From Elusimicrobia bacterium GWF2_62_30 (GTDB taxonomy: Bacteria; Elusimicrobiota; Elusimicrobia; Elusimicrobiales; UBA9959), in NCBI GenBank assembly GCA_001799995.1, contig MGUK01000022.1:202-52307 (forward strand): a stretch of 52,106 nucleotides of DNA, in the 5' to 3' direction. The notes beneath the pieces were generated by a model, which saw only the letters and a program-made list of their open reading frames with translations, was not told the origin of the DNA and ran no database searches. The position numbers and the translations under genes were made by a program. Below are positions 297 through 42,723 of the stretch, one piece after another; position 1 is the stretch's first letter; each line of letters begins with the position of its first letter.

Positions 297-419
297 GCCG
301 CCGTGGGGACCGGGCCGACAAAACGCGCTCGGCACACCGTGCCTCGCTCACCCTCCGGCCTCGCCGCTATGCAAGGCTCGGCCTCCGGAAGGTTTTGCTG
401 GCCCGGTCCCCGCGTCGGC
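297..419 (-). repeat. Structured dispersed element, copy 1
   Basis: Core of the element family read on the minus strand, including the GGCACGGTGTGCC hairpin. The outer arm 302-316 pairs with 400-414 over 15 positions (one G-T), including a perfect 12-bp inverted repeat GGGGACCGGGCC; pairing continues to 297/419 after one mismatch. The inner box is GCAAAAC/GTTTTGT. It fills the gap between the hydrolase fragment and the hypA promoter. Confidence 0.85.
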
Positions 420-470
420 TGCTGGCTTGCTCAAAGTGGGCTGTCCTGAGCCTGCTAAATCCAAATTTTG

Positions 471-476
471 TATTAT
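471..476 (+). promoter_or_regulatory. -10 box of hypA, leaderless spacing
   Basis: TATTAT ends 6 nt before the hypA ATG at 483, with TTTTG directly upstream. No Shine-Dalgarno sequence precedes the ATG. With a normal 6-7 nt distance from -10 to +1, transcription would begin at or next to the start codon. Confidence 0.55.
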
Positions 477-482
477 TTACCT

Positions 483-887
483 ATGCATGAATGGGCATTG
501 GCTGAATCCGTAATAAAAACCGCCGTGGAACATTCCACGCTTAAGAAGTTCAAAAAGCTCAAAGAAGTAGGCGTGGTCTTCGGCGAACTCCAGGCCATAG
601 ACAAAGATATCTTCGTCTTCGCCCTCGACGGCCTCCGGGCGCAGTACCCCGGCGCTAAAGACTGCAAGTTCAAGGTCTCCGTCGAGCCCGCGGTCTTCCG
701 CTGCAAAGCCTGCTCTAAAGAATTCCCGCTCAAAGGCCTTAAAAAGACCAAGGACGAGGCGGAGTTCATCCATTTCGTCCCCGAGATGGCCCACACTTTC
801 CTCAAATGCCCCCGCTGCAAAAGCCCCGATTTCGAAATAGCCGAAGGCCGCGGCGTGGGCCTCAGCTATATAAAGGGCAGCAAATGA
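483..887 (+). CDS. hypA: Hydrogenase/urease nickel incorporation protein HypA
   Basis: HypA is the zinc-containing nickel chaperone that hands Ni(II) to the large subunit of [NiFe] hydrogenase. The 134-residue protein starts with Met-His-Glu, the N-terminal nickel-binding signature, which is why the ATG at 483 was chosen over the upstream TTG at 468. The zinc site is C74-x2-C77 and C109-x2-C112, giving the usual two CxxC pairs; 134 residues is slightly longer than bacterial HypA because of a charged insert between the pairs, as in archaeal homologues. The stop overlaps the start of the next gene (ATGA), so the two are translationally coupled. No hydrogenase structural gene lies in the window. 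Confidence 0.93.
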   Translation: MHEWALAESVIKTAVEHSTLKKFKKLKEVGVVFGELQAIDKDIFVFALDGLRAQYPGAKDCKFKVSVEPAVFRCKACSKEFPLKGLKKTKDEAEFIHFVPEMAHTFLKCPRCKSPDFEIAEGRGVGLSYIKGSK

Positions 888-1588
888 TAGACCCCCGCCC
901 GTCGGTGATCTCGGAGCGCCTCAGCGGCGTAAAGCGCGTGATAGCCGTCACCGGCTGGAAAGGCGGCATCGGCAAAAGCGTCACCGCCTCCACGCTGGCG
1001 CTGACGCTGGCGCGCAAGGGCTGCCGCACCGGCCTTTTCGACCTCGATTTCGCCGGCGCGTCCGACCACCTCATCCTCGGCGCCAAAGGCCTGTTCCCCA
1101 AAGAGGAAAAAGGCCTGGAGCCGCCGTTGCTCTGCGGCGTGAAGTTCATGTCCGTGGTTTTCTTCTCGGAGAACAAGGCCGTGCCGCTGCGCGGGGCCAA
1201 TGTCTCCGACGCGATCATAGAACTGCTGGCCATCACGCAGTGGGGCGAACTGGATTTCCTCGTGCTGGACATGCCGCCCGGAGTGAACGACGCCGCGCTG
1301 GACGTGATGCGCTTCATTCCCCGGGCCGAAGTGCTGGCCGTTACCACGCCGTCTATGATAGCCCGCGACGTGCTCGAGCGCTCCCTGGTCCTTTACCGCA
1401 AGCTGAAGGTGCCGGTGCTCGGCGTGCTGGAGAACATGTCGCCCGCGCGCTCGCCGCGCGCCGGCCGCATCAGGCTGGACCCGGCGCTGGAAAAAGCCCT
1501 GGGCCGCCCCGAGGCGCTCCTTAAAACCGCGTTCGCGCGCGACCTGGACAGATGCCTGCCCTTTGTATTTGGTAAAATGAAACTGTAA
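884..1588 (+). CDS. hypB: Mrp/MinD-family ATPase, ATPase-type HypB (HypA partner)
   Basis: A 234-residue SIMIBI-class P-loop ATPase with the deviant Walker A motif KGGIGKS (residues 26-32), switch I DLDFAGASDH near residue 52 and Walker B LVLDMPPG near residue 128. Classical HypB is a GTPase with a different P-loop. In Thermococcales the HypA partner is instead an Mrp/MinD-type ATPase (HypB-AT), with a LGxxx...PP...GVKFMS...PLRG pattern like the one seen here. The gene overlaps hypA by 4 nt (ATGA), which strongly suggests a joint role in nickel delivery. The start is set by that overlap. The alternative, a generic Mrp/NBP35 Fe-S carrier, is less likely because no C-terminal CxxC carrier motif is visible. 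Confidence 0.78.
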   Translation: MIDPRPSVISERLSGVKRVIAVTGWKGGIGKSVTASTLALTLARKGCRTGLFDLDFAGASDHLILGAKGLFPKEEKGLEPPLLCGVKFMSVVFFSENKAVPLRGANVSDAIIELLAITQWGELDFLVLDMPPGVNDAALDVMRFIPRAEVLAVTTPSMIARDVLERSLVLYRKLKVPVLGVLENMSPARSPRAGRIRLDPALEKALGRPEALLKTAFARDLDRCLPFVFGKMKL

Positions 1589-1589
1589 G

Positions 1590-1712
1590 TATGCAGCAGG
1601 AACGGGGTGCGAAGCCCCGGCTGCCCCGCAACGGTAATGCCCCGCAGGAGCAGGGATAAGCCCGGTCTACTGCAAACCTCGCCGCCCGGCGGAGAGGATT
1701 CCGAGGGGAAGG
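1590..1712 (+). promoter_or_regulatory. Cobalamin riboswitch
   Basis: The leader contains the cobalamin aptamer core: GGGGTGCGAAGCCCCGGCTG followed by CCCCGCAACGGTAA and, further on, a GAGCAGGGATAAGCCCG-type segment. It lies between hypB and btuF on the coding strand and is followed directly by an intrinsic terminator, as in transcription-attenuating B12 riboswitches. Expected action: adenosyl- or another cobalamin binds, the terminator forms, and btuF-btuCD is turned off. Edges are approximate. Confidence 0.93.
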
Positions 1713-1717
1713 AGTAT

Positions 1718-1746
1718 AGCCCATCCTTTTCGGTTGGGCTTTTTTT
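1718..1746 (+). terminator. Riboswitch expression-platform terminator abutting btuF
   Basis: AGCCCATCC-ttttc-GGTTGGGCT (one mismatch) followed by seven T residues. The T-run ends at 1746 and the btuF ATG is the next base, so the terminator stem occupies the position of the ribosome binding site. The nearest purine-rich sequence, GGGGAAGGAG, is about 35 nt upstream of the ATG, on the other side of the stem. Confidence 0.88.
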
Positions 1747-2556
1747 ATGAGAACAAAGAACCGCACGCTGTCCCTCCTCGCTTTAACGCTGCTGCTGTCC
1801 TGCCTTTCCGCCGCGCCGGCCGGCGCGCTGCGCGTGGTGTCCCTGATGCCCTCCTACACCGAGATCGTCTTCGCGCTGGGCGCGGGGGGGGAACTCGTAG
1901 GGGTCTCCAATTTCTGCAACTGGCCGCCCGAGGCCGAAAAAATAGAGAAGACCGGCGATTACCTGCGCCCCAACGTAGAAAAGATCTATTCCCTTAAGCC
2001 GGACCTGGTCTTCTCCGGCGACTGGGCCGGCTCGCAGGTGGAAAAGCAGCTCTCCTCGCTGCATATAAAGGTGGCGCGCATCCCCGAGGAAAAGAACGTG
2101 GCGGACATCTTTTCCACTATAAACCTTATAGCCGCTAAACTGGGCCGCAAGGCGGAAGCCGGAAAACTGGTGAAGGAGCTGCGCGCCGCGCTGCCCGCGG
2201 AAAAGAGCACCAGGCCCGTCACCGTCTATTTCGAGACCGACGCCGGCGGCTGGACCACCGGCGGGAAAGCGTTCATCTCCGACGTGATCTCGCTGGCCGG
2301 CGGCGCTAACGTCTTCGGCAGGGAAAAGAAAGGCTATTTCCAGGCCTCCTGGGAAGAGGTGCTGCTGCTCGACCCGCAGGCGGTGGTCCTGCTTTCCGGC
2401 TCGCGCGAGGAATTCCTCAAACGCCCCATGGCCTCCGGCCTGGCCGCGGTCAAGGCCGGCAGGGTTATCACCACGCTGGACCGCGACGTGTTTTCCAGGC
2501 CCGGCCCCAGGATCTTCGGTGAAATAAACAAACTTAAAGCGCTGCTGCAAAACTAA
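1747..2556 (+). CDS. btuF: Cobalamin ABC transporter substrate-binding protein BtuF-like
   Basis: Periplasmic binding protein of 269 residues with an N-terminal signal peptide (Arg/Lys start, hydrophobic core, Ala-x-Ala cleavage near residue 27). The mature N-terminus RVVSLMPSYTEIVFALGAG is typical of the BtuF/FecB family of class III binding proteins, two lobes joined by a long helix. Location behind a cobalamin riboswitch and 2 nt ahead of a permease-ATPase fusion supports corrinoid rather than iron-siderophore uptake. Start is the ATG directly after the terminator T-run; no other in-frame ATG preserves the signal peptide. Confidence 0.9.
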   Translation: MRTKNRTLSLLALTLLLSCLSAAPAGALRVVSLMPSYTEIVFALGAGGELVGVSNFCNWPPEAEKIEKTGDYLRPNVEKIYSLKPDLVFSGDWAGSQVEKQLSSLHIKVARIPEEKNVADIFSTINLIAAKLGRKAEAGKLVKELRAALPAEKSTRPVTVYFETDAGGWTTGGKAFISDVISLAGGANVFGREKKGYFQASWEEVLLLDPQAVVLLSGSREEFLKRPMASGLAAVKAGRVITTLDRDVFSRPGPRIFGEINKLKALLQN

Positions 2557-2558
2557 AC

Positions 2559-4325
2559 ATGAGAGCCCGCTCCCTCCTGCTGCTGCTCGCCGCGCTGACC
2601 GCGGCCGTGCTTTTCTCGCTGGGCGCCGGGCCGGCCGGCATCTCCGACTGGGCGCTGATAACCGGCCTGAGGCTGCCGCGTACGCTGGCGGCCCTTATCG
2701 TCGGGACGGGGCTGGGCCTGGCGGGCGCGCTTTTCCAGGGCGCCCTTAAAAACCCGTTGAGCGACCCTTACATCCTCGGCACTTCGGCCGGGGCTACGGC
2801 CGCCGCCGTGCTCTGCTTCATGTCCGGCATAGAGCGCGGTTCCCCGCTTTTCTACCTGCTCGTCTTTTGCGGCGCATTCGGCGCCACGTTCCTTTCCTAC
2901 TGGCTGGCGCGCCTGGCCGGCCGCCTTTCCGACGCGTCCCTGGTGCTGGCCGGCGTGGCGGTAAGCGCCTTCCTGTCCGCGGTGGTCATGCTGGCGCTGA
3001 GCGTCGCAAAAGAAAGATCGTTCTCCCTGTTCAGCTTCGTGCTGGGCGGGCTTTATCCCGCTTCCGGCACCGAGCTGGGCGTTTCCGCGGCCATAGTCGC
3101 GGCCTGCGCGGCGCTGGCTATGCTGCGCTGGCGGGCCCTGGACGCCATGGGCCTCGGCGAGGAAAAGGCCTACCACCTGGGCGCCGACCCCGCCCGCGAG
3201 CGCCTGATCTTCTTCGCGCTCGCCTGCGCCTCCACCTCCGCGGCGGTCTCCCTGGGCGGCACCATCGGTTTCGTGGGCCTGATGACGCCGCATATCATGC
3301 GCCTGTTCTGCGGCCCTTCGGCCCGCTGGCTTCTCCCGGCGGCCGCCGCCGGCGGCGCGGCGCTGCTTACCGCCGCCGACGCCGCCGGGCGCGTTCTTTT
3401 TTCTCCGTCCGAGATCCCCGCCGGGGTCATCATGGCCCTGGCCGGCGCGCCCTTCTTTATGTGGCTGCTGTGGCGGCGCCGCGGCGAAGGGGCCCCGGTA
3501 CTGCTGCCCTCGGCCGCGCGCGGTGAGGCTGCGGGACCCGCGGCTGCCGCCTGGGAAGCCGGAAGCGCCGGGACCGGGTCCGAAGGCCCGCTGCTCGCCG
3601 CGGACGGCCTGTGTTTCTCCTATGGCGCGGCCCCGCTCCTGAAAGACCTTTCCCTGAAGATCTCCGCCGGAGATTTCCTCTGCGTGCTCGGCCCCAACGG
3701 CTCCGGCAAATCCACCCTGCTGCGGCTGCTTACGGGCTTTATCCGCGCCGGCTCCGGCGAGGTGGTCCTGGGGGGGAAGCCGCTCCGGGACCTGCCGCTG
3801 CGCAGGCTGGCCGAGCTGGCCGCCTATGTGCCCAGCGAAACTTCCACCCCGTACGACTTCACGGTGAGGGAGACCGTCCTGCTGGGGCGCACCGCCCGCG
3901 CCGGCTTCTGGCGCGGCTACTCGGCCGACGACGAAAAAGAGGCGGACGCGGCGCTGGCGGAAACCGGTATTTCCGCCCTGGCCGGCCGTTCCATCAACGC
4001 GCTTTCGAGCGGGGAAAGGCAGCTGGTCTTCATCGCGCAGGCCCTGGCCCAGGGGGCCCGGCTGCTGCTGCTGGACGAGCCCACCTCCCACCTGGACCTG
4101 AAATACAAGGCGCAGATCATGTCCCTGCTCTCCGGCCTGGCCGGCAGGGGCTTTGCCGTAGCCGCGGTACTGCACGAGCCCGCCCTGGCCCGCCTGGGCT
4201 GCAGCAAGGTCCTGCTCCTCAACCCGGGGCGCCAGCCCCTTTACGGCCCCGCCGCGGCCATGCTTACCACCGAGATCCTGGCCCGCACCTATTCCCTTCC
4301 CCCGGATTCCCCCATATTAGGCTGA
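2559..4325 (+). CDS. btuCD: Fused cobalamin ABC permease and ATPase (BtuC-BtuD)
   Basis: A single 588-residue ORF joining two normally separate subunits. Residues 1 to about 310 form a FecCD-family permease with many membrane helices, the RLPRTLAALIVG and NPLSDPYILGTSAGA blocks and the coupling-helix region GFVGLMTPHIMRL. After a Gly/Ala/Pro-rich linker (about 311-345) comes a complete ABC ATPase: Walker A GPNGSGKST (378-386), signature LSSGERQ (about residue 481) and Walker B LLLLDEPTS (about residue 500). A dimer of the fusion would supply a whole type II importer. The frame is continuous with no stop or slip at the junction. It follows btuF by 2 nt and is controlled by the upstream cobalamin riboswitch. 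Confidence 0.9.
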   Translation: MRARSLLLLLAALTAAVLFSLGAGPAGISDWALITGLRLPRTLAALIVGTGLGLAGALFQGALKNPLSDPYILGTSAGATAAAVLCFMSGIERGSPLFYLLVFCGAFGATFLSYWLARLAGRLSDASLVLAGVAVSAFLSAVVMLALSVAKERSFSLFSFVLGGLYPASGTELGVSAAIVAACAALAMLRWRALDAMGLGEEKAYHLGADPARERLIFFALACASTSAAVSLGGTIGFVGLMTPHIMRLFCGPSARWLLPAAAAGGAALLTAADAAGRVLFSPSEIPAGVIMALAGAPFFMWLLWRRRGEGAPVLLPSAARGEAAGPAAAAWEAGSAGTGSEGPLLAADGLCFSYGAAPLLKDLSLKISAGDFLCVLGPNGSGKSTLLRLLTGFIRAGSGEVVLGGKPLRDLPLRRLAELAAYVPSETSTPYDFTVRETVLLGRTARAGFWRGYSADDEKEADAALAETGISALAGRSINALSSGERQLVFIAQALAQGARLLLLDEPTSHLDLKYKAQIMSLLSGLAGRGFAVAAVLHEPALARLGCSKVLLLNPGRQPLYGPAAAMLTTEILARTYSLPPDSPILG

Positions 4326-4369
4326 AAACGGCCCGGACCCCCTACTTCCCTGCCATAGGGGCGATTTGC

Positions 4370-4375
4370 TACAAT
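4370..4375 (+). promoter_or_regulatory. Putative extended -10 box ahead of the DUF4912/GH57 operon
   Basis: TTTGCTACAAT, ending at 4375, matches the TTTGC-TAyAAT pattern seen upstream of several genes in this window. It is 115 nt before the ATG at 4491, so this transcript would have a leader, and that gene has a good AAGGAGA Shine-Dalgarno. The -35 region is weak. The rest of the 165-bp gap holds nothing else I recognise. Confidence 0.35.
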
Positions 4376-4490
4376 GAAACAGGTGAAAGGGGGCGCAAGC
4401 CACTGCATTATATCAGGCCGTCCGCGTCCCAGACCCATCAATTTCAGGAGGGGGGCCTCCGTCATACGCTGTTTACTTAAGGAGAGATAA

Positions 4491-5351
4491 ATGACTTCGT
4501 CAGGGCAGATAAACAAGCATAACACCACGCCTGAAGCGGAACATAAGGCGTTGCCGGAAGGCTATGGCACCACCGAAGCGTCCCTGCTTCCCCGCGATCC
4601 CAACTGGATGTTCGTCTACTGGGAAATAACGGAAAATTCCAAAAAAGAAGCCCGTAAACAGCACGGCGAGGATATTTTCACCAAAGGCCGCCAGGTGATC
4701 CGCGTCTACGACGTCAGCGACAACGGCGGCTCCCGCTATTTCGACATCCAGGTGATGCACGACGCCAAGAGCTGGTACGTCAACGTCCAGGACAGCGGCA
4801 AGGCCTACTGCTGCGAGATCGGCCTGGTCCTGCCCGACGGCGCCTTCATCGGCCTGGTAAAGACCAATACCGTCAGCCTGCCCGCCGGCCGCGTCTCCGA
4901 CGTCACGGACGAGAAATGGATGGCCGTCTCCGCCGATTTCGACAAGCTGCTGCAGCTTTCGGGCGTGGAATACATCGGCAAGGGCTCCGGCGAGGTCGCC
5001 AAGTCCCTGGCCCAGCGCTGGGAGATGCTGCGCGCCGTGTTCTCCAGGGCCTCCTCGTGGGGCGTCAGCTCCATGTCTTCCCAGACCCTGCACCAGGCCA
5101 AGCCCGCCGAGAAGAAGTTCTGGCTGGTAGCCGACTGCGAACTGATCCTTTACGGGGCCACCGAACCCGACGCCTTCGTCACCGTGGCCGGCCGCAAAGT
5201 TACGCTCAACCCGGACGGCACCTTCTCCATGCGCTTCGCGCTGCCCGACGGCATAGTGGACCTGCCCGTAAAGGCCGTGTCCCAGGACGAGACCGATTCA
5301 CGGGAGATCGACATAAAGGTTACCAGGGCTACCACCACCGATGGCAAATAA
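4491..5351 (+). CDS. DUF4912 domain-containing protein
   Basis: Cytoplasmic protein of 286 residues without signal peptide. The N-terminal half carries the DUF4912 signature: DPNWMFVYWEIT followed by a beta-rich region (RVYDVSD, VNVQDSGKAYCCEIGL, FIGLVKTNTVSLP) that resembles a carbohydrate-binding or Ig-like fold. The C-terminal part (about 200-280) is a short beta-sandwich-like domain with GTFSMRFALPDG. DUF4912 genes are commonly found next to GH57 glucan-processing enzymes, and here the next gene, a GH57 branching enzyme, overlaps it by 11 nt. A role in glycogen or alpha-glucan handling is inferred from that neighbour. Start is supported by AAGGAGA 8 nt upstream. Confidence 0.82.
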   Translation: MTSSGQINKHNTTPEAEHKALPEGYGTTEASLLPRDPNWMFVYWEITENSKKEARKQHGEDIFTKGRQVIRVYDVSDNGGSRYFDIQVMHDAKSWYVNVQDSGKAYCCEIGLVLPDGAFIGLVKTNTVSLPAGRVSDVTDEKWMAVSADFDKLLQLSGVEYIGKGSGEVAKSLAQRWEMLRAVFSRASSWGVSSMSSQTLHQAKPAEKKFWLVADCELILYGATEPDAFVTVAGRKVTLNPDGTFSMRFALPDGIVDLPVKAVSQDETDSREIDIKVTRATTTDGK

Positions 5352-6960
5352 CGAAAAAGGCTACCTCGCTTTAGTCCTTCACGCGCATCTTCCGTTCATA
5401 CGCCACCCGGAGTATGAGGATTTCCTCGAAGAAGACTGGTTCTTCGAGGCCATGTGCGAAACCTATATCCCGCTCCTGGACGTCTACGAACGCCTGACCG
5501 CGGAGGGCACGGATTTCCGCGTTACCATGTCCATCACGCCGCCCTTGTGCAACATGATGGCCGACGACCTGCTGCGCGAGCGCTTCCGCCGCTACTACAG
5601 CCTGCGGCTGGAGCTGGCCGAAAAAGAAGTGGTGCGCACCCGCAATACCGCTTTTTACGAAGTGGCCAAGATGTACGAGACCAAGTTCCGCCGCATCCGC
5701 GAGCTGTACGAGGATTATTACCACGGCCGCATCCTGGACGGTTTTAAGAAGTTCCAGGACCTGGGCAAGCTCGAGATCATCACCTGCGGCGCCACCCACG
5801 GCTTCCTGCCGCTGGAGCTGCGCAAAGAGGCCGTCCACGCGCAGATCAAGCTGGCCGCCGACGATTACCGCAAGCATTTCGGGCGCGGCCCGCGCGGCAT
5901 CTGGCTGGCCGAATGCGCCTATAACCCCGGCGACGACGTCTTCCTGAAGGCGGAGGGCATCCGCTACTTCTTCCTGGAGACGCACGGCATCATCTACGGC
6001 AGCCCGCGCCCGCGCTACGGCGTATACGCGCCGGTGTACTGCCCTTCCGGCGTGGCCGCCTTCGGCCGCGACATGGAAAGCGCCCAGCAGGTGTGGAGCG
6101 CGGAGACCGGCTACCCCGGCGACCACCGCTACCGCGAGTTCTACCGCGACCTGGGCTACGACCTGGAATACGATTACATCAAGCCGTACCTGCACCAGGA
6201 CGGCGTGCGCCGCAACATCGGCATGAAGTACTGCAAGATCACCGGCAAGGTGCAGCTCAACGAGAAGGCCCCCTATAACCCGGCGGAAGCGCGCGAGATG
6301 GCGGCCAGCCACGCGGGAAACTTCATGTTCAACCGCGAACGCCAGATCGAGCACCTGGAGCATTTCCTCGGCAAAAAGCCGATAGTGATCTCCATGTACG
6401 ACGCCGAGCTTTACGGCCACTGGTGGTACGAGGGCGTGGATTTCCTGGAGTTCCTCTTCAAGAAGATCCACCACGACCAGCAGTCCATCAAGATGGTGAC
6501 GCCGAGCGAATACCTTACGATGCACCCCGACAACCAGGTGGTGCAGCCCTCCATGTCGACGTGGGGGGACAAGGGCTACAACGAAGTGTGGCTTAACGGC
6601 ACCAACGACTGGATGTACCGCCACCTGCACAAGCAGGTGGAGCGCATGGTGGAGATGGCCAACAAGTTCCCGTCCGCCGAGGGCACGCTGAGGCGCGCGC
6701 TCAACCAGTGCGCGCGCGAGGTGGTGCTCGGCATGTCGTCGGACTGGGCGTTCCTGATGACGGTGGGCACGGCCAAGAGCTACTCCACCAAGCGCTTCGT
6801 GGCCCACACGCACCGTTTCAACGGCCTGTATGAGCAGATCATGGGCAACCGCCTGGAAGAGGCCTGGCTCAAGGACATCGAGTGGCGCGACAACATCTTC
6901 CCGGAGATGAACTACCGCGTCTTCTCGACGGAAGAGACCCAGAAAGCCGCCAAGAGCTGA
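5341..6960 (+). CDS. GH57 1,4-alpha-glucan branching enzyme (DUF1957 type)
   Basis: Cytoplasmic enzyme of 539 residues of glycoside hydrolase family 57, expected to move alpha-1,4 glucan segments to alpha-1,6 positions during glycogen synthesis. The first conserved block is LVLHAHLPFIRHPE. The likely nucleophile is E191 in IWLAECAYNPG and the acid/base D354 in MYDAELYGHWWYEG, matching the positions in characterised GH57 branching enzymes (around 184 and 353). The helical C-terminal region with LNGTNDWMYRH is also family-typical. Length fits. It overlaps the DUF4912 gene out of frame by 11 nt and is closed by a strong terminator at 6974-7008. Confidence 0.92.
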   Translation: MANNEKGYLALVLHAHLPFIRHPEYEDFLEEDWFFEAMCETYIPLLDVYERLTAEGTDFRVTMSITPPLCNMMADDLLRERFRRYYSLRLELAEKEVVRTRNTAFYEVAKMYETKFRRIRELYEDYYHGRILDGFKKFQDLGKLEIITCGATHGFLPLELRKEAVHAQIKLAADDYRKHFGRGPRGIWLAECAYNPGDDVFLKAEGIRYFFLETHGIIYGSPRPRYGVYAPVYCPSGVAAFGRDMESAQQVWSAETGYPGDHRYREFYRDLGYDLEYDYIKPYLHQDGVRRNIGMKYCKITGKVQLNEKAPYNPAEAREMAASHAGNFMFNRERQIEHLEHFLGKKPIVISMYDAELYGHWWYEGVDFLEFLFKKIHHDQQSIKMVTPSEYLTMHPDNQVVQPSMSTWGDKGYNEVWLNGTNDWMYRHLHKQVERMVEMANKFPSAEGTLRRALNQCAREVVLGMSSDWAFLMTVGTAKSYSTKRFVAHTHRFNGLYEQIMGNRLEEAWLKDIEWRDNIFPEMNYRVFSTEETQKAAKS

Positions 6961-6973
6961 CCCTCCCCAAAAC

Positions 6974-7008
6974 AAAAGCCCCGCTGCTCAAAACAGCGGG
7001 GCTTTTTA
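6974..7008 (+). terminator. Intrinsic terminator after GH57 branching enzyme
   Basis: AAAGCCCCGCTG-ctcaaaa-CAGCGGGGCTTT with a 12-bp perfect stem and TTTTT tail, 13 bases after the stop codon. The A-run on the left arm means it could also work in the other direction for the facing gene. Confidence 0.93.
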
Positions 7009-7030
7009 TTGGGACTTCTAATTCTGCTAC

Positions 7031-7156
7031 GGGGTGCCGGGCGGGCCGGAACGCAAAACGCGCTCGGCACACCGTGCCTCGCTCTTCCTCCGGCCTCGGC
7101 GCTATGCAAGCCTCGGCCTACGGACGGTTTTGCTAACCCGGCCCGCCCGGCACCCC
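7031..7156 (-). repeat. Structured dispersed element, copy 2
   Basis: Minus-strand copy of the core, with the most perfect arms of the family: GGGGTGCCGGGCGGGCCGG (7031-7049) is matched exactly over 19 bp by 7138-7156. The inner box is GCAAAAC/GTTTTGC. It lies between the branching-enzyme terminator and copy 3, which points the other way; the two are only 30 bp apart. Confidence 0.92.
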
Positions 7157-7186
7157 TAAGCTGCACCGTTAATATTAAGAGGAGCT

Positions 7187-7320
7187 CGCGGGCGACGCGG
7201 GGACCGGGTTAGCAAAACCTTCCGACGACTGAGCCTTGCGTAAGCGGCGAAGGAGGAGGATGAGCGACGGGCACGGTGTGCCCTAGCGCGTTTTGCGTTC
7301 CGGTCCCCGCGGCGCACGCG
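7187..7320 (+). repeat. Structured dispersed element, copy 3
   Basis: Plus-strand copy, the most diverged of the five canonical ones in its first internal hairpin. Arms: CGCGGGGACCGG (7196-7207) pairs perfectly with 7300-7311; beyond single mismatches, 3 and then 4 further pairs extend to 7187/7320. The second hairpin is enlarged to GGGCACGGTGTGCCC, keeping its pairing. Inner box GCAAAAC/GTTTTGC. Confidence 0.88.
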
Positions 7321-7366
7321 CGGGTTGCTTGAGGTTCCGGGCGGGCCATCCCGAACCCTAAAGCGG

Positions 7367-33180: not shown

Positions 33181-33237
33181 TTGGGGTCAGACCCTAGGGT
33201 CTGACCCCAGGGTCTGACCCCAGGGTCTGACCCCAAC
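33181..33237. repeat. Tandem palindromic GGGTCTGACCCC repeat
   Basis: Four units of a 12-14 bp near-palindrome (GGGGTCAGACCC, then three AGGGTCTGACCCC units) occupy the whole gap between the nupC stop and the glycosyltransferase start. The same unit occurs at 37041-37097. Confidence 0.9.
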
Positions 33238-33242
33238 CGGAA

Positions 33243-34937: not shown

Positions 34938-35453
34938 TCAGTAGAAGCCGCGCACCTTCCCCGTAACTTCCGTTAAAGGCAGGAAATACAGCGGCTCGCC
35001 CGTGGCGGGGCTTTTCCAGCTGGCGGAATCGTTGGAATTGTCGCGGTTGTCGCCCAGCACGAACAGCCCGCCCTCCGGAACGGTCAGCGGGCCCACCGTA
35101 TCGCCCACCAGCCTTTCGCCGGGGCGCGCGTAATAAACGTAAATCTCATGCTGCAGCCCGCCGTTAAGGTACACGGCCTTCTCGCGCAGTTCAACGCTGT
35201 CCCCGGGCACGGCTATCACCCGCTTTACCGATTCATGCTCCTCGCCCACCGGCGAGCGGAAAGAAATTATCTCGCCGCGCTCCGGCGGCCGGCCCCTGAA
35301 GGTGACCTTGTCCAGCCACAGGTGATGCCCCTTGGTAAGCGTGGGCGCCATGGAATCGCTGGCTATGTAGATGGGCTCGCCCGCCCACTGGCGCAGGCCC
35401 AGCATGACCGCCACCGTAATAACGATAATAAGAGTTGTGCGTATCGGGTTCAT
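34938..35453 (-). CDS. lepB: Signal peptidase I
   Basis: A 171-residue type I signal peptidase with one N-terminal membrane anchor (TTLIIVITVAVMLGL). Catalytic Ser34 is in IASDSMAPTL and the general-base Lys77 in ESVKRVIAVPGD; box E is GGLFVLGDNRDNSNDSASW. The protein is compact, as in Gram-positive-like SipS forms, lacking the second helix of E. coli LepB. The start at 35453 overlaps the stop of the GH3 gene (ATGA); a longer frame through that gene is not real. Confidence 0.93.
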   Translation of the reverse strand: MNPIRTTLIIVITVAVMLGLRQWAGEPIYIASDSMAPTLTKGHHLWLDKVTFRGRPPERGEIISFRSPVGEEHESVKRVIAVPGDSVELREKAVYLNGGLQHEIYVYYARPGERLVGDTVGPLTVPEGGLFVLGDNRDNSNDSASWKSPATGEPLYFLPLTEVTGKVRGFY

Positions 35454-37030: not shown

Positions 37031-37040
37031 AGTAAATGAA

Positions 37041-37097
37041 GGGGGTCTGATTAAATGAAGGGGGTCTGACCCCAAATTCCCCCGGGGTCAGACCCCA
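37041..37097. repeat. GGGGTCTGACCCC repeat cluster, second locus
   Basis: AAATGAAGGGGGTCTGA occurs twice in direct repeat (37036-37070), the second running into GGGGTCTGACCCC, followed by an inverted GGGGTCAGACCCC (37084-37096). It fills the gap between the GH3 start and the upstream gene's stop at 37115. Confidence 0.88.
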
Positions 37098-37114
37098 TCC
37101 CTTCCCATCCCCTC

Positions 37115-38707
37115 TTACTTCGTAAACTTATACCCTCTCTTGGTCGCCTGCTTCCTTATAGTATCTATCACAGCCCTGTCCAGGGTGCCGGCCTTGGCGC
37201 CCGCGGCGCGCTTCTTCTCTTCGGCCGCCAGGTAAACTTTGCGCTGCGCCTGCAGCGCGTTTATCTCGTCCTTTATCTTCTTGCGGTCGGCCAGCTGCTT
37301 GTCCAGGAAAGCGTTGCGCTCTTTATCGCTCATCTTCTGCAGGTTCGCGGGCAGCTGGTCCTTCTTGAGCTCCTCGCGCTTAACCGTGCCGCTCTCCAGC
37401 GCCGACACCGCGTCCCACTCGGCCTCTTCGGCCGCCAGCGCCGACGGCGCCGCCGCCTTGTACGCCGCGCGGTCGGCCATGGCCGCCGTGCCGCCGGCTC
37501 CCGCGCCCGCGTAATTGGCCGCCATGCTGCCCCGCGCCGCAAATTTGGCTTCGGCATGCCTGCCGTAACCCACCGAAGTCCCGTCCAGCCTGGCGCTGAG
37601 CTCGCTTATCTTGTTGTCCTGCGGCGCCGCCGCCGTATACACCGCCGCCTCCTGGTCTATGTTCGTATAATCCCCGTCGGCCGCCTGCGCGCCGGCCAGC
37701 CACTGCTCGGCCATGCCCTGCTGGCGCGAGCCGCAGAAAATGGTGTTGACAAAAATGCCCTTAACCTTGGCCGCGGCCGCCGCCTGGTGGAAATCCACCG
37801 GGCCCTGCGTGAACGGCTCGTTGCCGGCTATAAAGATAGCCTTGTATACGTCTTCCTTGGGGCTCCATTTAAGACCGGCCACCGCGTCCTTTATCACCCA
37901 GCCGGAGTATTCGTCCCCGCCGTTGGTCTTCAGCGCAAACAGCTCCTGCGAAACTTTGTCCAGGTCGCGCGTGAACGGCAGCACCTGCCGGATATAGCCC
38001 CCCTGGCTGCCCAGCGCGGAATTGCCGTACTCGTAAACCGCCACCTCTATGGCCGGCGCGGAGCCGCTCTTCTCGGCGGTAACCAGCTCGTTCACTATCT
38101 TCCAGATCTGCATGCGCGCCTGGTTGATAAGCCCGTCCATGGAATTTGAAGTGTCCAGCAGCACGGCCACCTGCACCAGCGGCTTGTTGCCGAAGTCCTT
38201 GGGCGGATCTTTAGGGTCAGGCACCGTGGTAACTACCGCCGCGTCCTTCCAGGTCTTCTCCAGCTGCACCGCGGCGGCGGAAAGTATCTTGCCGGTCTCG
38301 GTCTCCACAATGCGCGCGTTTATCTCGCTCTTCTTTTCCTTAATATCATTAAGCGTGCCGGTCACCACCGCGTCCGCGCCCAAAAGCTTGCCCAGCTGCT
38401 TGGCGGTAGTATCGTCGATAGCGCCCGAAGCCTGCAGGTTCAGCTCGCCCATCACCTTCTTAAGCTGCCCGCGTTCAATAAGCGTAACCCCTTTAATTTT
38501 GGACAGCGCCGTAATAAGCCGCTCCTGCACCACCATAGGCCCCTCCGACGCCCTGCCCCCGACGTAGGGGAATTCCAGCACCGCCAATTTTATCGCTCCC
38601 CTATCCTTAATTCCGTTCGCCAGCTGATCCGCCAACTTATCCACCGGCTGCGCCCCCCAAGCCATCCCAGCCATCAGCATACACCCAATAAAATTCAATA
38701 CGCGCAT
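37115..38707 (-). CDS. CsgG/FlgO-like lipoprotein-type domain fused to von Willebrand A domain
   Basis: A 530-residue exported protein (signal MRVLNFIGCMLMAGMAWG). Residues about 25-150 match the CsgG/FlgO/curli-assembly-like fold: IKLAVLEFPYV, VVQERLITALSKIKGVTLIERGQL, LGKLLGADAVVTGTL. Residues about 180-370 form a VWA domain with a MIDAS motif LLDTSNSM and a downstream TNGGDEYSG. The C-terminal 150 residues are Ala/Lys/Glu-rich and helical (KKDQLPANLQKMSDKERNAF). I know of no function for this combination. GGAGG precedes the ATG at 38707; an earlier ATG in frame adds five residues only. Confidence 0.78.
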   Translation of the reverse strand: MRVLNFIGCMLMAGMAWGAQPVDKLADQLANGIKDRGAIKLAVLEFPYVGGRASEGPMVVQERLITALSKIKGVTLIERGQLKKVMGELNLQASGAIDDTTAKQLGKLLGADAVVTGTLNDIKEKKSEINARIVETETGKILSAAAVQLEKTWKDAAVVTTVPDPKDPPKDFGNKPLVQVAVLLDTSNSMDGLINQARMQIWKIVNELVTAEKSGSAPAIEVAVYEYGNSALGSQGGYIRQVLPFTRDLDKVSQELFALKTNGGDEYSGWVIKDAVAGLKWSPKEDVYKAIFIAGNEPFTQGPVDFHQAAAAAKVKGIFVNTIFCGSRQQGMAEQWLAGAQAADGDYTNIDQEAAVYTAAAPQDNKISELSARLDGTSVGYGRHAEAKFAARGSMAANYAGAGAGGTAAMADRAAYKAAAPSALAAEEAEWDAVSALESGTVKREELKKDQLPANLQKMSDKERNAFLDKQLADRKKIKDEINALQAQRKVYLAAEEKKRAAGAKAGTLDRAVIDTIRKQATKRGYKFTK

Positions 38708-38816
38708 ATAACCTCCACCCAATCAGTTAAACAACAATACCAAAAAAATAAGCTCCCCAATTCCTTATTCTACACCACCCCAACCAAGCGGCCGGGGGGA
38801 CTTGCTCGTGCATCTC

Positions 38817-38950
38817 CAGGGGCTTGACGCAGGAACCGGGTAAGCAAACCCTTCCGTAGGCCGAGGCTTGCATAGCGCCGAGGCCGGAGGATGAGCGAGG
38901 CACGGTGTGCCGAGCGCGGTTTGCGTCCCGGTCCCTGCGGCAATCCCCTG
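38817..38950 (+). repeat. Structured dispersed element, copy 4
   Basis: Plus-strand copy. The arm 38817-38840 pairs with 38927-38950 at 21 of 24 positions: CAGGGG/CCCCTG, TTG/CAA, CGCAGG/CCTGCG and ACCGGG/CCCGGT separated by single mismatches. The inner box is GCAAACC/GGTTTGC, unlike the A-T version in copies 1-3. It begins 5 nt after the stop of the minus-strand gene that ends at 38956. Confidence 0.9.
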
Positions 38951-38955
38951 CCAAA

Positions 38956-40026
38956 CTAAAACAGTAAAAACCTCCGCCGCTTCTCCAGCACCAGCACTTT
39001 ATACGGCATCATCCACCAATGCCCCTTATATTCCTTCAGCGCCAGCCTCACATCCCTGTGCTCCTCGAACAAAGGCCGCCACCCGTCCAAAACCTCCGGC
39101 TTCACCAGCACCGGCCTCTCCGTCGGGTTCGTCATAATAAGGAACCGCCGCCCGCCGCCCTTAACTATCCCCGCCGCCAGCTTAGCGTCCAAACCCTCCG
39201 GCGCCGGCAACCGCTCCCCGCCGTCCAGCGCCGGCAGCAAATGGTTCAGCTCCCAGGCCGTCTTCTCGTAAAAAGCCCAGCGCTCCGGCTGGTCGTAAAG
39301 CAGCTCGCCTTTAGTATTGCGCAGCGTAAAATAAAAAATCCCGCCGGCCCCGCGCAGCACCGAGATGTACGTCATGAACCGCACCTCGTCGCGCGTGGGG
39401 AAACGCCCCGCCGGAGGGTTCCGGAGCTGCGGGTATTCCATCCAGTCAAAGGCCTGCAGCACCGCCCATACCGGCTTATCCGGACGCTTTATGTCCAATT
39501 TCTTCGCCGCCTCTTTCACCAGGTTCACCTGGTAACCCACCGATTCCAGCCTGAAATGCAGCACCGGGTACCAGTCCACCATCAGCGCGTCGGCCACCGC
39601 CCCGTAGGTGAAAGCGGGCAGGCCCGAAGACAGCACAAAAGTGGTAGGCTGCGCCGGGTCCCAGTCCTTAACGCGCTTATCAAGCTGTTCCATATACGCC
39701 AGGGTCTTCTTGTGCACTTCAGGCTCGTCATAAAGGTACCAGGCCAGCATGGGCCAGCCCTTTGCCGCCGCGGCATAAGTGGAACCTATCACCTGGTCGG
39801 GGGAGGCCACCATCTTCATCCCCTGCTTCTCCGCCTCGGCCGCCAGCGCCGCCAGCAGCGCCGGGTCGCCCGCGTAGGTCTGAAAACAGTTGAACCCGCC
39901 CCGCTTCAGCGGGGCCAGCTCTTCCGGCGCCCCTACCCCGTACATGCAAACCGGGAAACCAAAGCCCCCGGCAGCGGCCGGCGCCGCCAGGCCCAAAAGC
40001 AGACAAAGGGAAGGTAATAATTTCAT
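38956..40026 (-). CDS. Exported TIM-barrel protein, possibly glycoside hydrolase-like
   Basis: A 356-residue exported protein with signal peptide MKLLPSLCLLLGLAAPAAAG. The mature part looks like a (beta/alpha)8 barrel: FPVCMYGVGAPEELAPLKRGGFN, LAWYLYDEPEVHKKTLAYM, ALMVDWYPVLHF, PVWAVLQAFDWMEYPQ, and GAGGIFYFTLRN. The DEP motif after a barrel strand is where acid/base residues lie in GH-A clan enzymes. A C-terminal beta domain (about 265-356) follows. No sure family; catalysis is inferred from fold only. A TAAAAT box lies 7 nt upstream of the ATG. Confidence 0.72.
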   Translation of the reverse strand: MKLLPSLCLLLGLAAPAAAGGFGFPVCMYGVGAPEELAPLKRGGFNCFQTYAGDPALLAALAAEAEKQGMKMVASPDQVIGSTYAAAAKGWPMLAWYLYDEPEVHKKTLAYMEQLDKRVKDWDPAQPTTFVLSSGLPAFTYGAVADALMVDWYPVLHFRLESVGYQVNLVKEAAKKLDIKRPDKPVWAVLQAFDWMEYPQLRNPPAGRFPTRDEVRFMTYISVLRGAGGIFYFTLRNTKGELLYDQPERWAFYEKTAWELNHLLPALDGGERLPAPEGLDAKLAAGIVKGGGRRFLIMTNPTERPVLVKPEVLDGWRPLFEEHRDVRLALKEYKGHWWMMPYKVLVLEKRRRFLLF

Positions 40027-40033
40027 ATTCGGA

Positions 40034-40039
40034 ATTTTA
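40034..40039 (-). promoter_or_regulatory. -10 box of the TIM-barrel gene, leaderless spacing
   Basis: Minus strand reads TTTTTTTGCTAAAAT-tccgaat-ATG: TAAAAT with 7 nt to the start codon and the TTTGC extension seen elsewhere. Confidence 0.5.
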
Positions 40040-40052
40040 GCAAAAAAAGTAC

Positions 40053-40058
40053 TTGACA
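40053..40058 (+). promoter_or_regulatory. Consensus -35 box upstream of the 40152 gene
   Basis: A perfect TTGACA. The -10 is less clear (TTATCA at 40076-40081 after 17 bp). The resulting leader contains a hairpin AAGTTCCC (40095-40102) / GGGAACTT (40114-40121) before the AAGGAGAG ribosome binding site. Confidence 0.5.
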
Positions 40059-40151
40059 TAATTTGGCCATATTATTTATCATTAGACCGTGGGAAAGTTC
40101 CCGCAGCAACGGGGGGAACTTCAAACGCTGTATTTTAGAAGGAGAGCATAG

Positions 40152-40820
40152 ATGAAATATTTAGCCGCAGTTATGTCAGTTTTATTGCTTGCCGGTATGG
40201 CAATGGCGCAGGATAAAGCGCCCAAGGCCGCCGGACTCAAGATCACCAAGATCACCGGCACCGTCAACCTGATGAAGGACGGCATGGTTGTAATGACCCT
40301 TAAGCCGGGCGACGCCCTTCCTTCCCTTGTGGACCCCAGCATGACCTTTGCCGTAGTGGAAGGCAGCATAGAAGTGGAGGCCGCCGGCCAGAAGATAACC
40401 GCCGCTACCGGCGCCAACTTCACCGTAACCTCCGATAACGGCCAGATGAACGTGGCCCTTACCGCCGGCACCCCGGTGGAGATCAAGAACACCGCCGGCA
40501 ATACCGTGGTGCTTACCGAGAATTCAGAAGTTAAGATGATCATGACCAACGGCAATGTAGAGGTTACCGTAGTAACCGGCAATGCCATGGTTTCCAGCTC
40601 TTCCGGCGGCGCGTCCACAAACGTGCAGGCCGGCGAGAAAATAGACATGGTCGTCCCCGTGGTGGCCCCTCCGGCCGGCACGCCCCCCGTGGTAACGCCC
40701 CCGGTAGACGACGGTATCGAGCCCCCTACGCCTCCGTTCGAAATGCCCGTCATCCCGGTCATGCCCGTGGAACCGCCGTCGGTAATTCCCTCGCAGGAGC
40801 TTAGCACCTCGGCAGGCTGA
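40152..40820 (+). CDS. Secreted beta-rich protein (FecR-like), shared C-terminal tail
   Basis: A 222-residue exported protein: signal MKYLAAVMSVLLLAGMAMA, then a beta-rich domain (about 28-165) with ITKITGTVNLMKDG and repeated short strands resembling the FecR/LPS-A-OstA style fold, then a Pro/Val-rich segment (about 170-222) ending EPPSVIPSQELSTSAG. The last 14 residues are nearly identical to those of the FecR-domain protein at 42836-43696. It sits 40 nt ahead of an outer-membrane barrel in the polysaccharide region; AAGGAGAG supports the start. Function unknown. Confidence 0.75.
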   Translation: MKYLAAVMSVLLLAGMAMAQDKAPKAAGLKITKITGTVNLMKDGMVVMTLKPGDALPSLVDPSMTFAVVEGSIEVEAAGQKITAATGANFTVTSDNGQMNVALTAGTPVEIKNTAGNTVVLTENSEVKMIMTNGNVEVTVVTGNAMVSSSSGGASTNVQAGEKIDMVVPVVAPPAGTPPVVTPPVDDGIEPPTPPFEMPVIPVMPVEPPSVIPSQELSTSAG

Positions 40821-40860
40821 AGCACGTTGTATCAATTTAGCTTAAATACAGGAGAATTAA

Positions 40861-42042
40861 ATGAAGAACGCAATAATAATAGCGCTAGTAGCCACCTTCG
40901 CCAACTCGGCCTGGGCCGTGGGCAATATAAAGCTCGGCACCGTGGAGATCAACCCCACCGCCAGCATTAAGCAGAGCTACGACAGCAACATCTACCTTAA
41001 GGCCACCGACCTTAAGTCGTCGCTCATCAACCGTTCCGCCATCGGCGTGAACCTGCTCAACAAGTTCGGCCCCAAGCTGGAACTCTCCGGCGGTTATATG
41101 CTGGAACAGCTCAGCTACAGCCGCTCCGCCGGCATCAACGACGCCACGCACCACACCGCCAACCTCGGCCTTAAAGCCAAGCTGCCGCGCGACGCCTCCC
41201 TGTCCATAGACGACAACTTCATGGACACTACCGACCAGGCCACCAGCGAACTGACCGAGCGCGCCCAGCGCGTGCAGAACACCGCCACGCTCAAGATGGA
41301 AGCCCCTCTGCGCGGCAAGTTCGGCTACGGCATAGACGTGCAGCATAACTACAACGACTACAAGCTTCTCTCAAACGACGCCCTTGACCGCGCCGAAACC
41401 CTGGCCGGCTTCAACGTTAGCTACCAGCTGCAGCCCAAGACCAAAGTGTTCCTGGGCTACACCTACGGCGACCTGAAGTACGACAACAGCACCTACGAAA
41501 CCGGCGACGCCACCTACAACAACATCGACGTAGGCGTAATGGGCAACCTGGCCCCCAAGCTGGTCGGCATAGTTAAAGCCGGTACCCAGATGCGCAACTA
41601 TAAGAACTCCCTTGTCTCCGGCGGCATCACCGCCGACGACAACTCCTCCCTGGCCACCTACAGCGCCCAGCTGCAGTGGAAGGCCCTTGAGAAGACCGAG
41701 ATAGTGGGCTTTGCCAAGCGCGCCAACGTGGAAACCAGCGGTTCCGTAAGCCGCTACTACACCAGCACCCTTAGCGACCTGAGCGCTTCCCGCGAAGTGC
41801 GCAAGATAAAGCTCACCGTGGGCGGCAGCTTTGAGACCGTAGAATATCCCGAAGCCCTCTCCACCACCAGCGACAAAAAGCGCTTCGACCACAACACCAA
41901 CCTGCGCTTTACCGCCGAATACAACATGCAGACCTGGCTCAAAGCCGGCCTGGGCTACCAGTACAAGAACCGCACCTCCAACGTTGAGACCAATGACTAT
42001 AAAGACAATGTCATCGGCCTGGAACTGAAAGGCATGTTCTAA
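40861..42042 (+). CDS. Outer-membrane beta-barrel protein
   Basis: A 393-residue exported barrel. Signal peptide MKNAIIIALVATFANSAWA, then a mature start VGNIKLGTVEINPTASIKQSYDSNIYL that is typical of the BBP2/outer-membrane barrels found in exopolysaccharide loci. At least 16 amphipathic strands follow, with a C-terminus ...LKGMF ending in Phe. By position it might be the outer-membrane channel of a polysaccharide export route, parallel to PelB/AlgE/BcsC-like barrels, but that is inference. It has AGGAG before the ATG and a terminator at 42062-42088. Confidence 0.82.
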   Translation: MKNAIIIALVATFANSAWAVGNIKLGTVEINPTASIKQSYDSNIYLKATDLKSSLINRSAIGVNLLNKFGPKLELSGGYMLEQLSYSRSAGINDATHHTANLGLKAKLPRDASLSIDDNFMDTTDQATSELTERAQRVQNTATLKMEAPLRGKFGYGIDVQHNYNDYKLLSNDALDRAETLAGFNVSYQLQPKTKVFLGYTYGDLKYDNSTYETGDATYNNIDVGVMGNLAPKLVGIVKAGTQMRNYKNSLVSGGITADDNSSLATYSAQLQWKALEKTEIVGFAKRANVETSGSVSRYYTSTLSDLSASREVRKIKLTVGGSFETVEYPEALSTTSDKKRFDHNTNLRFTAEYNMQTWLKAGLGYQYKNRTSNVETNDYKDNVIGLELKGMF

Positions 42043-42061
42043 TCCTTAGCAAGTAAAATAG

Positions 42062-42088
42062 AAAAGCCGCCTAACGGCGGCTTTTTTA
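42062..42088 (+). terminator. Intrinsic terminator after beta-barrel gene
   Basis: AAAAGCCGCC-taac-GGCGGCTTTTTT: a 10-bp perfect stem with tetraloop-like turn and T-run, 19 nt after the stop. Confidence 0.93.
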
Positions 42089-42111
42089 TTTATATCCCTT
42101 ATATAAGGGGA

Positions 42112-42552
42112 TCACTTGCCAAGCTTCCCGGCCAACTGCTTAACACAAGCCTGCACCACCCCCAGTATCCGCTCAAAAACCTTATCATCCTTCCCCATAG
42201 GATCCTCCAGCTCAGCGCCCTCTTCGCCCGTACAATACTCCAAAAACAAATGCATCTTCCGCCCGCTCTGCGGGAACCGCTCCTCCACAGCCTCAAAATG
42301 CCCATTGTCCATCACCAGTATAAGGTCCGCCCAATCCACATCCGCCTCCGCAATAAACGACCCTCTGTTCCCCGTCTCCTTAACCCCAGCCCTAATAAGG
42401 AATTCTCTAACCGGCCGCGGCATAACCCCATAAGGCTGCGCCGCCACCCCGCGCGACCTCACCTCCACCCCGGGAACGTTCTCAAGCGCTAATAACTTCT
42501 CCGCCGCCGCGCTCCTGCACAAATTCCCCGTACAAACAAAAAGCACTTTCAT
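42112..42552 (-). CDS. Low-molecular-weight protein tyrosine phosphatase (Wzb-like)
   Basis: A 146-residue phosphatase. The P-loop C7-x5-R13 is in VCTGNLCRS, and the general-acid Asp is in DPMGKDD near residue 118. Such enzymes dephosphorylate Wzc-type BY-kinases, and a Wzc homologue is encoded at 47502. The Ser that usually follows Arg is retained, while the canonical Ile after Asn is Leu. It stands alone on the minus strand between the barrel and the FecR gene. TAAAAT lies 9 nt upstream of the ATG with no clear Shine-Dalgarno. Confidence 0.92.
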   Translation of the reverse strand: MKVLFVCTGNLCRSAAAEKLLALENVPGVEVRSRGVAAQPYGVMPRPVREFLIRAGVKETGNRGSFIAEADVDWADLILVMDNGHFEAVEERFPQSGRKMHLFLEYCTGEEGAELEDPMGKDDKVFERILGVVQACVKQLAGKLGK

Positions 42553-42595
42553 AGTTTCCCAATTTTACCAAATAATCCCACCTTGGACACGTGGA

Positions 42596-42723
42596 GGGGG
42601 CGATGTGAGGGCCGGGTTAGCAAACCCTTCCGTAGGCCGAGGCTTGCATAGCGCCGAGGCCGGAGGATGAGCGAGGCACGGTGTGCCGAGCGCGGTTTGC
42701 GTTCCGGCCCTCACAGCGCCCCC
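42596..42723 (+). repeat. Structured dispersed element, copy 5
   Basis: Plus-strand copy. TGTGAGGGCCGG (42604-42615) pairs perfectly with 42704-42715; after one mismatch, GGGGGCG (42596-42602) pairs with CGCCCCC (42717-42723), so 19 of 20 positions pair. Inner box GCAAACC/GGTTTGC as in copy 4; the core is almost identical to copy 4. It lies between two divergent genes. Confidence 0.92.

What the first reader, a model, noticed from the sequence alone, without database searches (positions are those of the whole stretch)
297..42723. A dispersed structured element family: conserved core, copy-specific complementary arms
Five intergenic copies (297-419, 7031-7156, 7187-7320, 38817-38950, 42596-42723) share an internal core of about 80 bp with the GGCACGGTGTGCC hairpin and a GCAAA.C closing box. 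Each copy has a different flanking sequence, yet the two flanks of each copy pair over about 19-21 positions: 19/19 in copy 2, 19/20 in copy 5, 21/24 in copy 4. Such loss of primary sequence with kept complementarity points either to selection on an RNA stem (a new structured RNA class or processing signal) or to a small mobile element that inserts into pre-existing hairpins. I recognise no known REP, MITE or riboswitch in it.
Basis: seen in the sequence. Interest (0 to 1): 0.87.

Follow-up and report, generated by a model that had tools for sequence, protein, structure and literature searches.

The report
Elusimicrobial branched hairpin mobile repeat
A roughly 125-base folded DNA repeat is scattered dozens of times through the genomes of one family of Elusimicrobia, with a shared middle and two flanks that differ from copy to copy but match each other, which points to a mobile element whose two arms change together.

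Summary
The five window copies belong to a family with 99 covariance-model matches in this 2.9-Mb Elusimicrobiota genome. All 32 genus genomes searched carry it (5-99 matches), as do 5 of 11 sampled genomes from other genera of the family; 0 of 180 sampled genomes elsewhere in the phylum do. The unit is a long closing stem (the arms) plus two side hairpins with tandem-GA motifs. Core and arms covary strongly. Own arms pair better than 95% of swapped arms in 159 of 172 copies. Copies lie mostly between genes, without strand preference, often as divergent pairs. Presence and core subtype differ between related genomes, so the family is mobile and copies exchange core sequence. At matched loci both arms often change at once, mostly by transversion. 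This fits joint replacement (for example template switching between inverted-repeat arms) better than stepwise RNA compensation, though the sample is small and hand-picked. A pre-existing hairpin with the same arms was not seen in empty sites. Rfam has no match in what was searched, and the paper searches list no description. Best reading: a new, branched variant of the ERIC/YPAL-like small mobile repeats. Mobilising enzyme and any RNA function are unknown.

The parts
294..418 (-). copy 1 of family A (branched hairpin)
   Evidence: CM R1 120.2 bits; sequence
7030..7153 (-). copy 2 of family A, left half of a divergent pair with copy 3
   Evidence: CM R1 135.7 bits; sequence
7192..7319 (+). copy 3 of family A (other core subtype, longer P3), right half of the divergent pair
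   Evidence: CM R1 138.3 bits
38824..38947 (+). copy 4 of family A
   Evidence: CM R1 136.9 bits; the related genome G004 lacks the element at the matching spot
42600..42723 (+). copy 5 of family A; G004 has an element at the matching spot with very different but self-complementary arms
   Evidence: CM R1 141.9 bits; L094 64-221
42600..42616 (+). copy 5, 5' arm (P1)
   Evidence: model positions 1-17
42703..42719 (+). copy 5, 3' arm (P1)
   Evidence: paired partner of the 5' arm
42630..42667 (+). copy 5, side hairpin P2 with CGAG/CGAG tandem-GA
   Evidence: structure; ends placed by hand
42669..42693 (+). copy 5, side hairpin P3 (GGCACGGTGTGCC) with CGAG/CGAG tandem-GA
   Evidence: structure; ends placed by hand
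43790..43920 (+). family B element: same GCAAACCC/GGGTTTGC box and paired arms, different inside; 12 copies in the genome

Best explanation
This is a high-copy, presumably non-coding and non-autonomous mobile repeat of about 125 nt. One strand can fold into a long closing stem (the two arms) and two side hairpins that hold tandem-GA motifs. Shown: it is dispersed, found in one bacterial family among the genomes searched, mostly intergenic, polymorphic between relatives, present singly or as divergent pairs (in two genomes inside a composite of about 290-360 bp, most with shared outer ends), and its core is exchanged between copies. Inferred: it spreads by transposition with arms that serve as terminal inverted repeats. 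After insertion the arms drift, but both sides change together, most likely because template switching between the inverted-repeat arms during DNA replication copies one arm onto the other. Core conversion between copies keeps the middle alike. The result is a common core with copy-specific, mutually complementary arms. The mobilising enzyme is unknown.
For: Structure: 95.1% of cells paired, 32 of 39 pairs with two-sided change, covariation 0.445 against shuffled 0.126 +/- 0.006 and at most 0.070 for slid partners. Mobility: a G043 insert absent from G018 and G021, and another absent from G018, G006 and G041. Composite units. Core exchange with arms kept: G018 C26:313524 = G043 C8:42876 and G018 C26:345451 = G043 C8:72392. 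Arms in 72 G000 copies run from identical to one by-eye canonical arm down to 0.23 identity, with a median of 0.54 against 0.38 for shuffled arms. Joint change: 5 G018/G043 loci give 9 kept double changes (7 transversions) against 12 single changes (9 transitions); double changes expected by independence 3.6, observed 13. One locus (L183/L233, right unit) has 5 kept doubles and no single. Template switching is reported to homogenise inverted-repeat arms and invert spacers (PMC8604942 abstract) and to give multibase compensatory changes (PMC8794818 abstract).
Against: Selection on pairing could add to the same pattern. G-U exceeds A-C mismatches in the inner arm (pairs 7-12: 42 against 25, p 0.05), as RNA-level selection would predict. 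Single changes (27) are not rare beside 43 kept doubles, and in the far pairs the singles too are mostly transversions (10 of 15), so only the 5 close loci show the contrast between the two kinds of change. The loci were picked by hand, and some far pairs may be independent insertions at one hot spot. No inversion of a core between conserved arms was seen; the one orientation flip (Omega1) also has different arms. The founder-arm idea is weak at the tips: GGAGG at the outer 5' arm in 8 of 72 copies against 7 shuffled, CCGA after the 3' arm in 15 against 8. No transposase was tied to the element, no target-site duplication was shown, and no clean empty site fixes the insertion boundary.
Confidence: 0.52

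Rival explanations
1. A new structured RNA class (for example an mRNA 3'-end stabiliser, processing or termination signal) in which selection on the transcript keeps the long stem paired while its sequence drifts.
For: Two-sided changes in 6 of 7 helices; tandem-GA positions mostly conserved on one strand; a recurrent A-G mismatch in the arm (103 A-G against 3 C-U in pairs 13-18) and a G-U excess in the inner arm; few copies between divergent genes (8 of 106 intergenic).
Against: No strand preference between same-direction genes (22 sense, 23 antisense unpaired copies; 34 and 36 with pairs); no G-U excess in the outer arm (6 against 11); kept double changes mostly transversions (33 of 43); presence/absence between relatives; no transcript data available.
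Confidence: 0.24
2. A mobile core that inserts into pre-existing hairpins, so that the arms belong to the target.
For: A composite insertion in G043 lies directly after the dyad AACATTAAAAGATTTTAATGTT (G021 form; G018 has one base different) of the empty sites, and another lies inside a weaker dyad of the G018 empty site. YPAL repeats insert in or next to dyad symmetry (PMC2229807 passages). Core subtypes change while arms stay.
Against: None of the empty sites aligned holds a palindrome with the arms of the filled site. The G046 spot lacks the 24-bp arms of G044. Some copies share arm sequence well beyond the core. The fold of the empty sites is only modestly better than shuffles (fractions 0.02-0.09).
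Confidence: 0.1
3. A REP/REPIN-type element moved by a RAYT (Y1) transposase.
For: Y1 matches in 27 of 32 genus genomes; divergent pairs recall BIMEs; a RAYT gene sits at the spot in G014 and G042 that matches an element locus of G018.
Against: 0 of 30 Y1 loci examined (of 86 matches) hold a copy within the fetched stretch of up to 1.5 kb each side. Five genomes without any Y1 match carry 20-45 copies. The two RAYT genes inspected have other hairpins at their ends.
Confidence: 0.06

Closest known systems
YPAL / Yersinia palindromic sequence (RU-2)
   Same: Small intergenic mobile repeat (about 168 bp) with inverted repeats; filled and empty sites between relatives; target sites in or beside dyad symmetry (PMC2229807 passages)
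   Different: Target-site duplications of 3-26 bp are reported for YPAL and none was shown here; copy-specific complementary arms and a branched core with tandem-GA motifs are not mentioned in the passages read
ERIC / RU-1
   Same: About 127 bp, intergenic, dispersed, stable stem-loop transcript (PMC2229807 passages)
   Different: Different host; ERIC has short TIRs and TSD in the table read, while here the arm sequence varies from copy to copy. Sequence and fold were not compared directly
BIME / REP / REPIN
   Same: Units in alternating (divergent) orientation, between genes, many copies (PMC2817692 abstract start in search listing, PMC3116915 abstract)
   Different: REPs are 20-40 bp palindromes (PMC3733652 abstract start in search listing) linked to RAYTs (PMC3116915 abstract); here the unit is about 125 nt, branched, and not beside the RAYT genes examined
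Template-switch maintained inverted repeats
   Same: Joint multibase change of both arms (PMC8794818, PMC8604942 abstracts)
   Different: Described for RNA genes and yeast coding genes in what was read; here across a dispersed bacterial repeat family

Membership tests
Small bacterial MITE-like repeats (ERIC, YPAL, RUP, Correia) | Size about 100-200 bp, many intergenic copies | tested here: met
   about 125 nt; 99 matches; 106 of 110 copies intergenic
Small bacterial MITE-like repeats (ERIC, YPAL, RUP, Correia) | Presence/absence at matching sites | tested here: met
Small bacterial MITE-like repeats (ERIC, YPAL, RUP, Correia) | Conserved terminal inverted repeats | tested here: inconclusive
   arms alike in a minority of G000 copies and decaying in the rest, tip motifs little above shuffles; composite left end in 5 of 7 and right end in 6 of 7 units
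Small bacterial MITE-like repeats (ERIC, YPAL, RUP, Correia) | Target-site duplication | tested here: inconclusive
   none seen by eye in the aligned filled/empty pairs, but no exact empty site
Small bacterial MITE-like repeats (ERIC, YPAL, RUP, Correia) | Related autonomous transposon | tested here: inconclusive
   only Y1 transposases were searched; DDE transposases not tested
REP/BIME/REPIN with RAYT | 20-40 bp palindromic unit | tested here: not met
   126-position model, full-length matches
REP/BIME/REPIN with RAYT | Copies beside RAYT genes | tested here: not met
   0 of 30 loci examined, of 86 Y1 matches
REP/BIME/REPIN with RAYT | Alternating orientation in clusters | tested here: met
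Known Rfam RNA families | Match at or above gathering score | tested here: not met
   whole window: only a cobalamin riboswitch elsewhere; 5 loci with copies: 0; in 341 bases at a lax threshold only sub-threshold hits, the best MIR839 at 81.4 bits of 200 needed
Structured cis-acting RNA | Fixed orientation to the neighbouring gene | tested here: not met
   22 sense against 23 antisense among unpaired copies between same-direction genes
Structured cis-acting RNA | Transcribed | not testable with these tools
   no RNA data

The most novel reading that the evidence does not exclude
The core is a cassette that moves hairpin-to-hairpin: it enters a resident hairpin by a symmetric exchange across the stem, replaces the old core and inner stem, and leaves the resident outer arms in place. 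Evidence that does not exclude this: core subtypes swapped under unchanged arms, and an inner stem (pairs 3-5 and 7) changed on both sides at once, with one further two-sided change at pair 15 and the other pairs of the 20 compared unchanged (L183/L233). That would be a stem-directed homing element; the paper searches made here list nothing of the kind.
Probability: 0.12. Interest if true: 0.85.

Novelty: new variant of a known kind. Interest (0 to 1): 0.6.

Why it matters
Covariation is usually read as strong evidence of a selected RNA. Here is a family with over a thousand matches in one genus in which strong covariation goes together with mobility, no strand preference and two-sided transversions. 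It offers a natural test of how far replication-coupled arm copying can imitate RNA selection, and many loci in related genomes on which to measure it. It also describes an abundant repeat family of an uncultured bacterial group.

Tried and rejected
RAYT-driven REPIN: tested through Y1 genes and their surroundings, rejected as the main reading. Known RNA: Rfam at gathering and at a lax threshold, nothing convincing. Phage origin: exact pattern in viral contigs, 0. Inverted duplication of target sequence at insertion: looked possible at two sites (window copy 4 against G004; G018 C26:304869 against G043), where the outer 3' arm resembles the empty site, but not at G044 against G046, and G021 has an unrelated spacer at the second spot; left open. 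A first count of G-U against A-C used a score that favours G-U; it was replaced by a symmetric score. A first ortholog comparison had the arms out of register; it was replaced. Identity of arms beyond their first difference is at the level of column composition, so it does not separate old drift from block replacement. The correlation of 0.85 between 5' and 3' arm identities follows from complementarity alone and is no extra evidence. The first orientation count mixed in divergent pairs, which balance themselves; one search repeats it without them.
Full report
OBSERVATION. A covariance model built from 47 copies of several genomes (A2, R1) finds them at 120-142 bits. They share a core of about 85 nt and two flanks that pair. 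The core folds as an inner stem GCAAAAC/GTTTTGC and two side hairpins, P2 and P3. Both carry a symmetric tandem-GA motif (CGAG/CGAG in the common form): in A2 both GA sites of P2 and the first of P3 are invariant, while the second P3 site reads TA in a G000 subtype. In A2, 19 of 39 predicted pairs have two-sided changes, including pairs inside the core (GC 32, CG 15 in P2; CG 33, UA 10, GC 2 in P3). In A4 (83 matches, 81 distinct, from 60 stretches of G000 and G018 fetched later, aligned to the same model) 95.1% of cells pair, 32 of 39 pairs change on both sides, and the covariation score is 0.445 against 0.126 shuffled and at most 0.070 for slid partners. An alignment fitted to a model leans toward that model.

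EXTENT. A 22-base pattern with up to one mismatch finds 75 places in G000 (the window's assembly: 2.91 Mb, 99 contigs, 84% complete); the reversed control finds 0. R1 finds 99 at E <= 1e-4. Each of the 32 genus genomes searched has between 5 and 99 matches. In 198 genomes drawn from the phylum 12 match: 7 of this genus (the own genome included) and 5 of other genera of its family. Six more family members and the 180 genomes outside the family have none (stricter filters, which lose weak matches). Low-scoring subtypes exist (long P2 insert, extended P3, alternative inner stem), so counts depend on the cut-off.

SECOND FAMILY AND PAIRS. Family B (window 43790-43920) has the same GCAAACCC/GGGTTTGC box and another inside; 12 copies in G000. 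By eye most of these share one arm sequence, and the window copy deviates. Six of the 12 B matches lie within about 50 bp of an A match. Among the matches listed for G018 and G043 (a capped list), I counted by hand 23 pairs within 250 bp (16 and 7), all minus-then-plus. Of seven pairs aligned (288-362 bp between model ends), five share the outer end GGGCGGCCTACCGTG at one side and six share CCCCGACT..TCTCGCGG at the other; the L183 pair has neither. Window copies 2 and 3 form a divergent pair without these ends.

PLACE. With a simple codon-usage gene caller of my own, of 129 matches 10 lay near stretch ends and 1 was a duplicate, and 8 more had no gene call on one side. Of the other 110, 106 are intergenic: 66 between same-direction, 32 between convergent and 8 between divergent genes; 4 overlap a called gene. 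The 43 gene junctions of the window are 31, 6 and 6. Toward same-direction neighbours the copies are 34 sense and 36 antisense; among unpaired copies alone 22 and 23. Copies at matching loci of several genomes were not merged.

MOBILITY AND CORE EXCHANGE. G043 contig 8 and G018 contig 26 are collinear in blocks of 81-93% identity. A composite at G043 C8:120669 is absent from G018 and G021. A pair at C8:129287 is absent from G018, G006 and G041, while G021 and G046 hold related inserts at that spot. G018 C26:304869 is absent from G043 and G021. Where both genomes hold a copy, the arms are alike but the core may be of another subtype: C26:313524 = C8:42876 (P2 tip replaced) and C26:345451 = C8:72392 (P2 and neighbours replaced, and one kept two-sided arm change). 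At one locus shared by eight genomes, six have family A with different arms (G043 in the opposite orientation), and G006 and G046 have other hairpins: an insertion hot spot or repeated replacement. A RAYT gene occupies, in G014 and G042, the spot that holds an element in G018.

ARMS. 212 matches gave 172 usable arm pairs. The own-arm score exceeds 95% of 2000 swapped pairs in 159, and in 120 of 172 when the innermost part of the arms is removed. Mean Watson-Crick pairs: 19.7 own, 11.4 swapped. Mismatch types under symmetric scoring: G-U against A-C 115/4 in pairs 1-6 (a conserved G-U sits there), 42/25 in 7-12, 32/20 in 13-18, 6/11 beyond 18. A-G against C-U is 103/3 in pairs 13-18, largely a recurrent A-G mismatch. 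So the inner arm shows strand preference and the outer arm does not. In 72 G000 copies the 5' arm ranges from identical to a canonical arm (read by eye) down to 0.23 identity; the median is 0.54 against 0.38 for shuffled arms; tip motifs are little above shuffles (8 against 7, 15 against 8). Thirteen locus pairs, chosen by hand (window copy 5 against G004 added), give: close (G018/G043, 5 loci, 100 positions) 75 same, 9 kept doubles (7 transversions, 2 transitions), 4 other doubles, 12 singles (9 transitions, 3 transversions); far (8 loci, 160 positions) 106 same, 34 kept doubles (26 transversions), 5 other doubles, 15 singles (10 transversions). Both-sides changes expected by independence are 3.6 and 13.5; observed 13 and 39. 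Stepwise compensation through G-U predicts transitions among kept doubles; the excess of transversions fits joint change or replacement. Template switching between inverted-repeat arms is reported to homogenise arms and invert spacers (PMC8604942, abstract) and to produce multibase compensatory changes (PMC8794818, abstract and start of introduction). Replacement of a whole element by a new insertion, or conversion by another copy, would leave the same mark and is not excluded, above all for the far pairs.

WHAT MOVES IT. Not found. Y1 (RAYT) matches occur in 27 of 32 genomes, but none of 30 loci examined (of 86 matches) has a copy within the fetched stretch of up to 1.5 kb each side, and five genomes without a Y1 match have 20-45 copies. 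DDE transposases were not tested.

KNOWN KINDS. It works like the small mobile repeats of bacteria (ERIC, YPAL, RUP, Correia; PMC2229807, passages) and, in its divergent pairs, like BIMEs (PMC2817692, abstract start in a search listing). It fails two defining features of REP/REPIN (unit size, RAYT proximity). Searches of the paper library for Elusimicrobia with repeats, palindromes, RNA motifs or MITE terms list nothing that describes it (titles and abstract starts of the 15, 4, 12 and 12 rows shown, out of 55, 4, 141 and 1,531 papers). I file it as a new variant of a known kind.

Noticed in passing
window 1553-1679 (+): Cobalamin riboswitch, 36.5 bits, the only Rfam hit of the window at gathering score.
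   Followed up: no
window 33181-33238: Tandem copies of a GGGGTCTGACCCCA palindrome in 13-base steps; resembles RAYT-associated REPs by memory.
   Followed up: no
window 43434-43558: Repeat with 12-base units inside the reading frame 42683-43696.
   Followed up: no
window 43790-43920: Family B element, a separate structured repeat with the same stem box; 12 copies in G000, most with one common arm sequence by eye.
   Followed up: partly
L243 and L251 against L042: A RAYT gene with TAGGGACAGCGCCCTA hairpin ends occupies, in two other species, the intergenic spot that holds an element in G018.
   Followed up: partly
L207 7190-7410, L206 7590-7800: At the eight-genome locus, G006 and G046 hold other hairpins that look unrelated to families A and B.
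   Followed up: no
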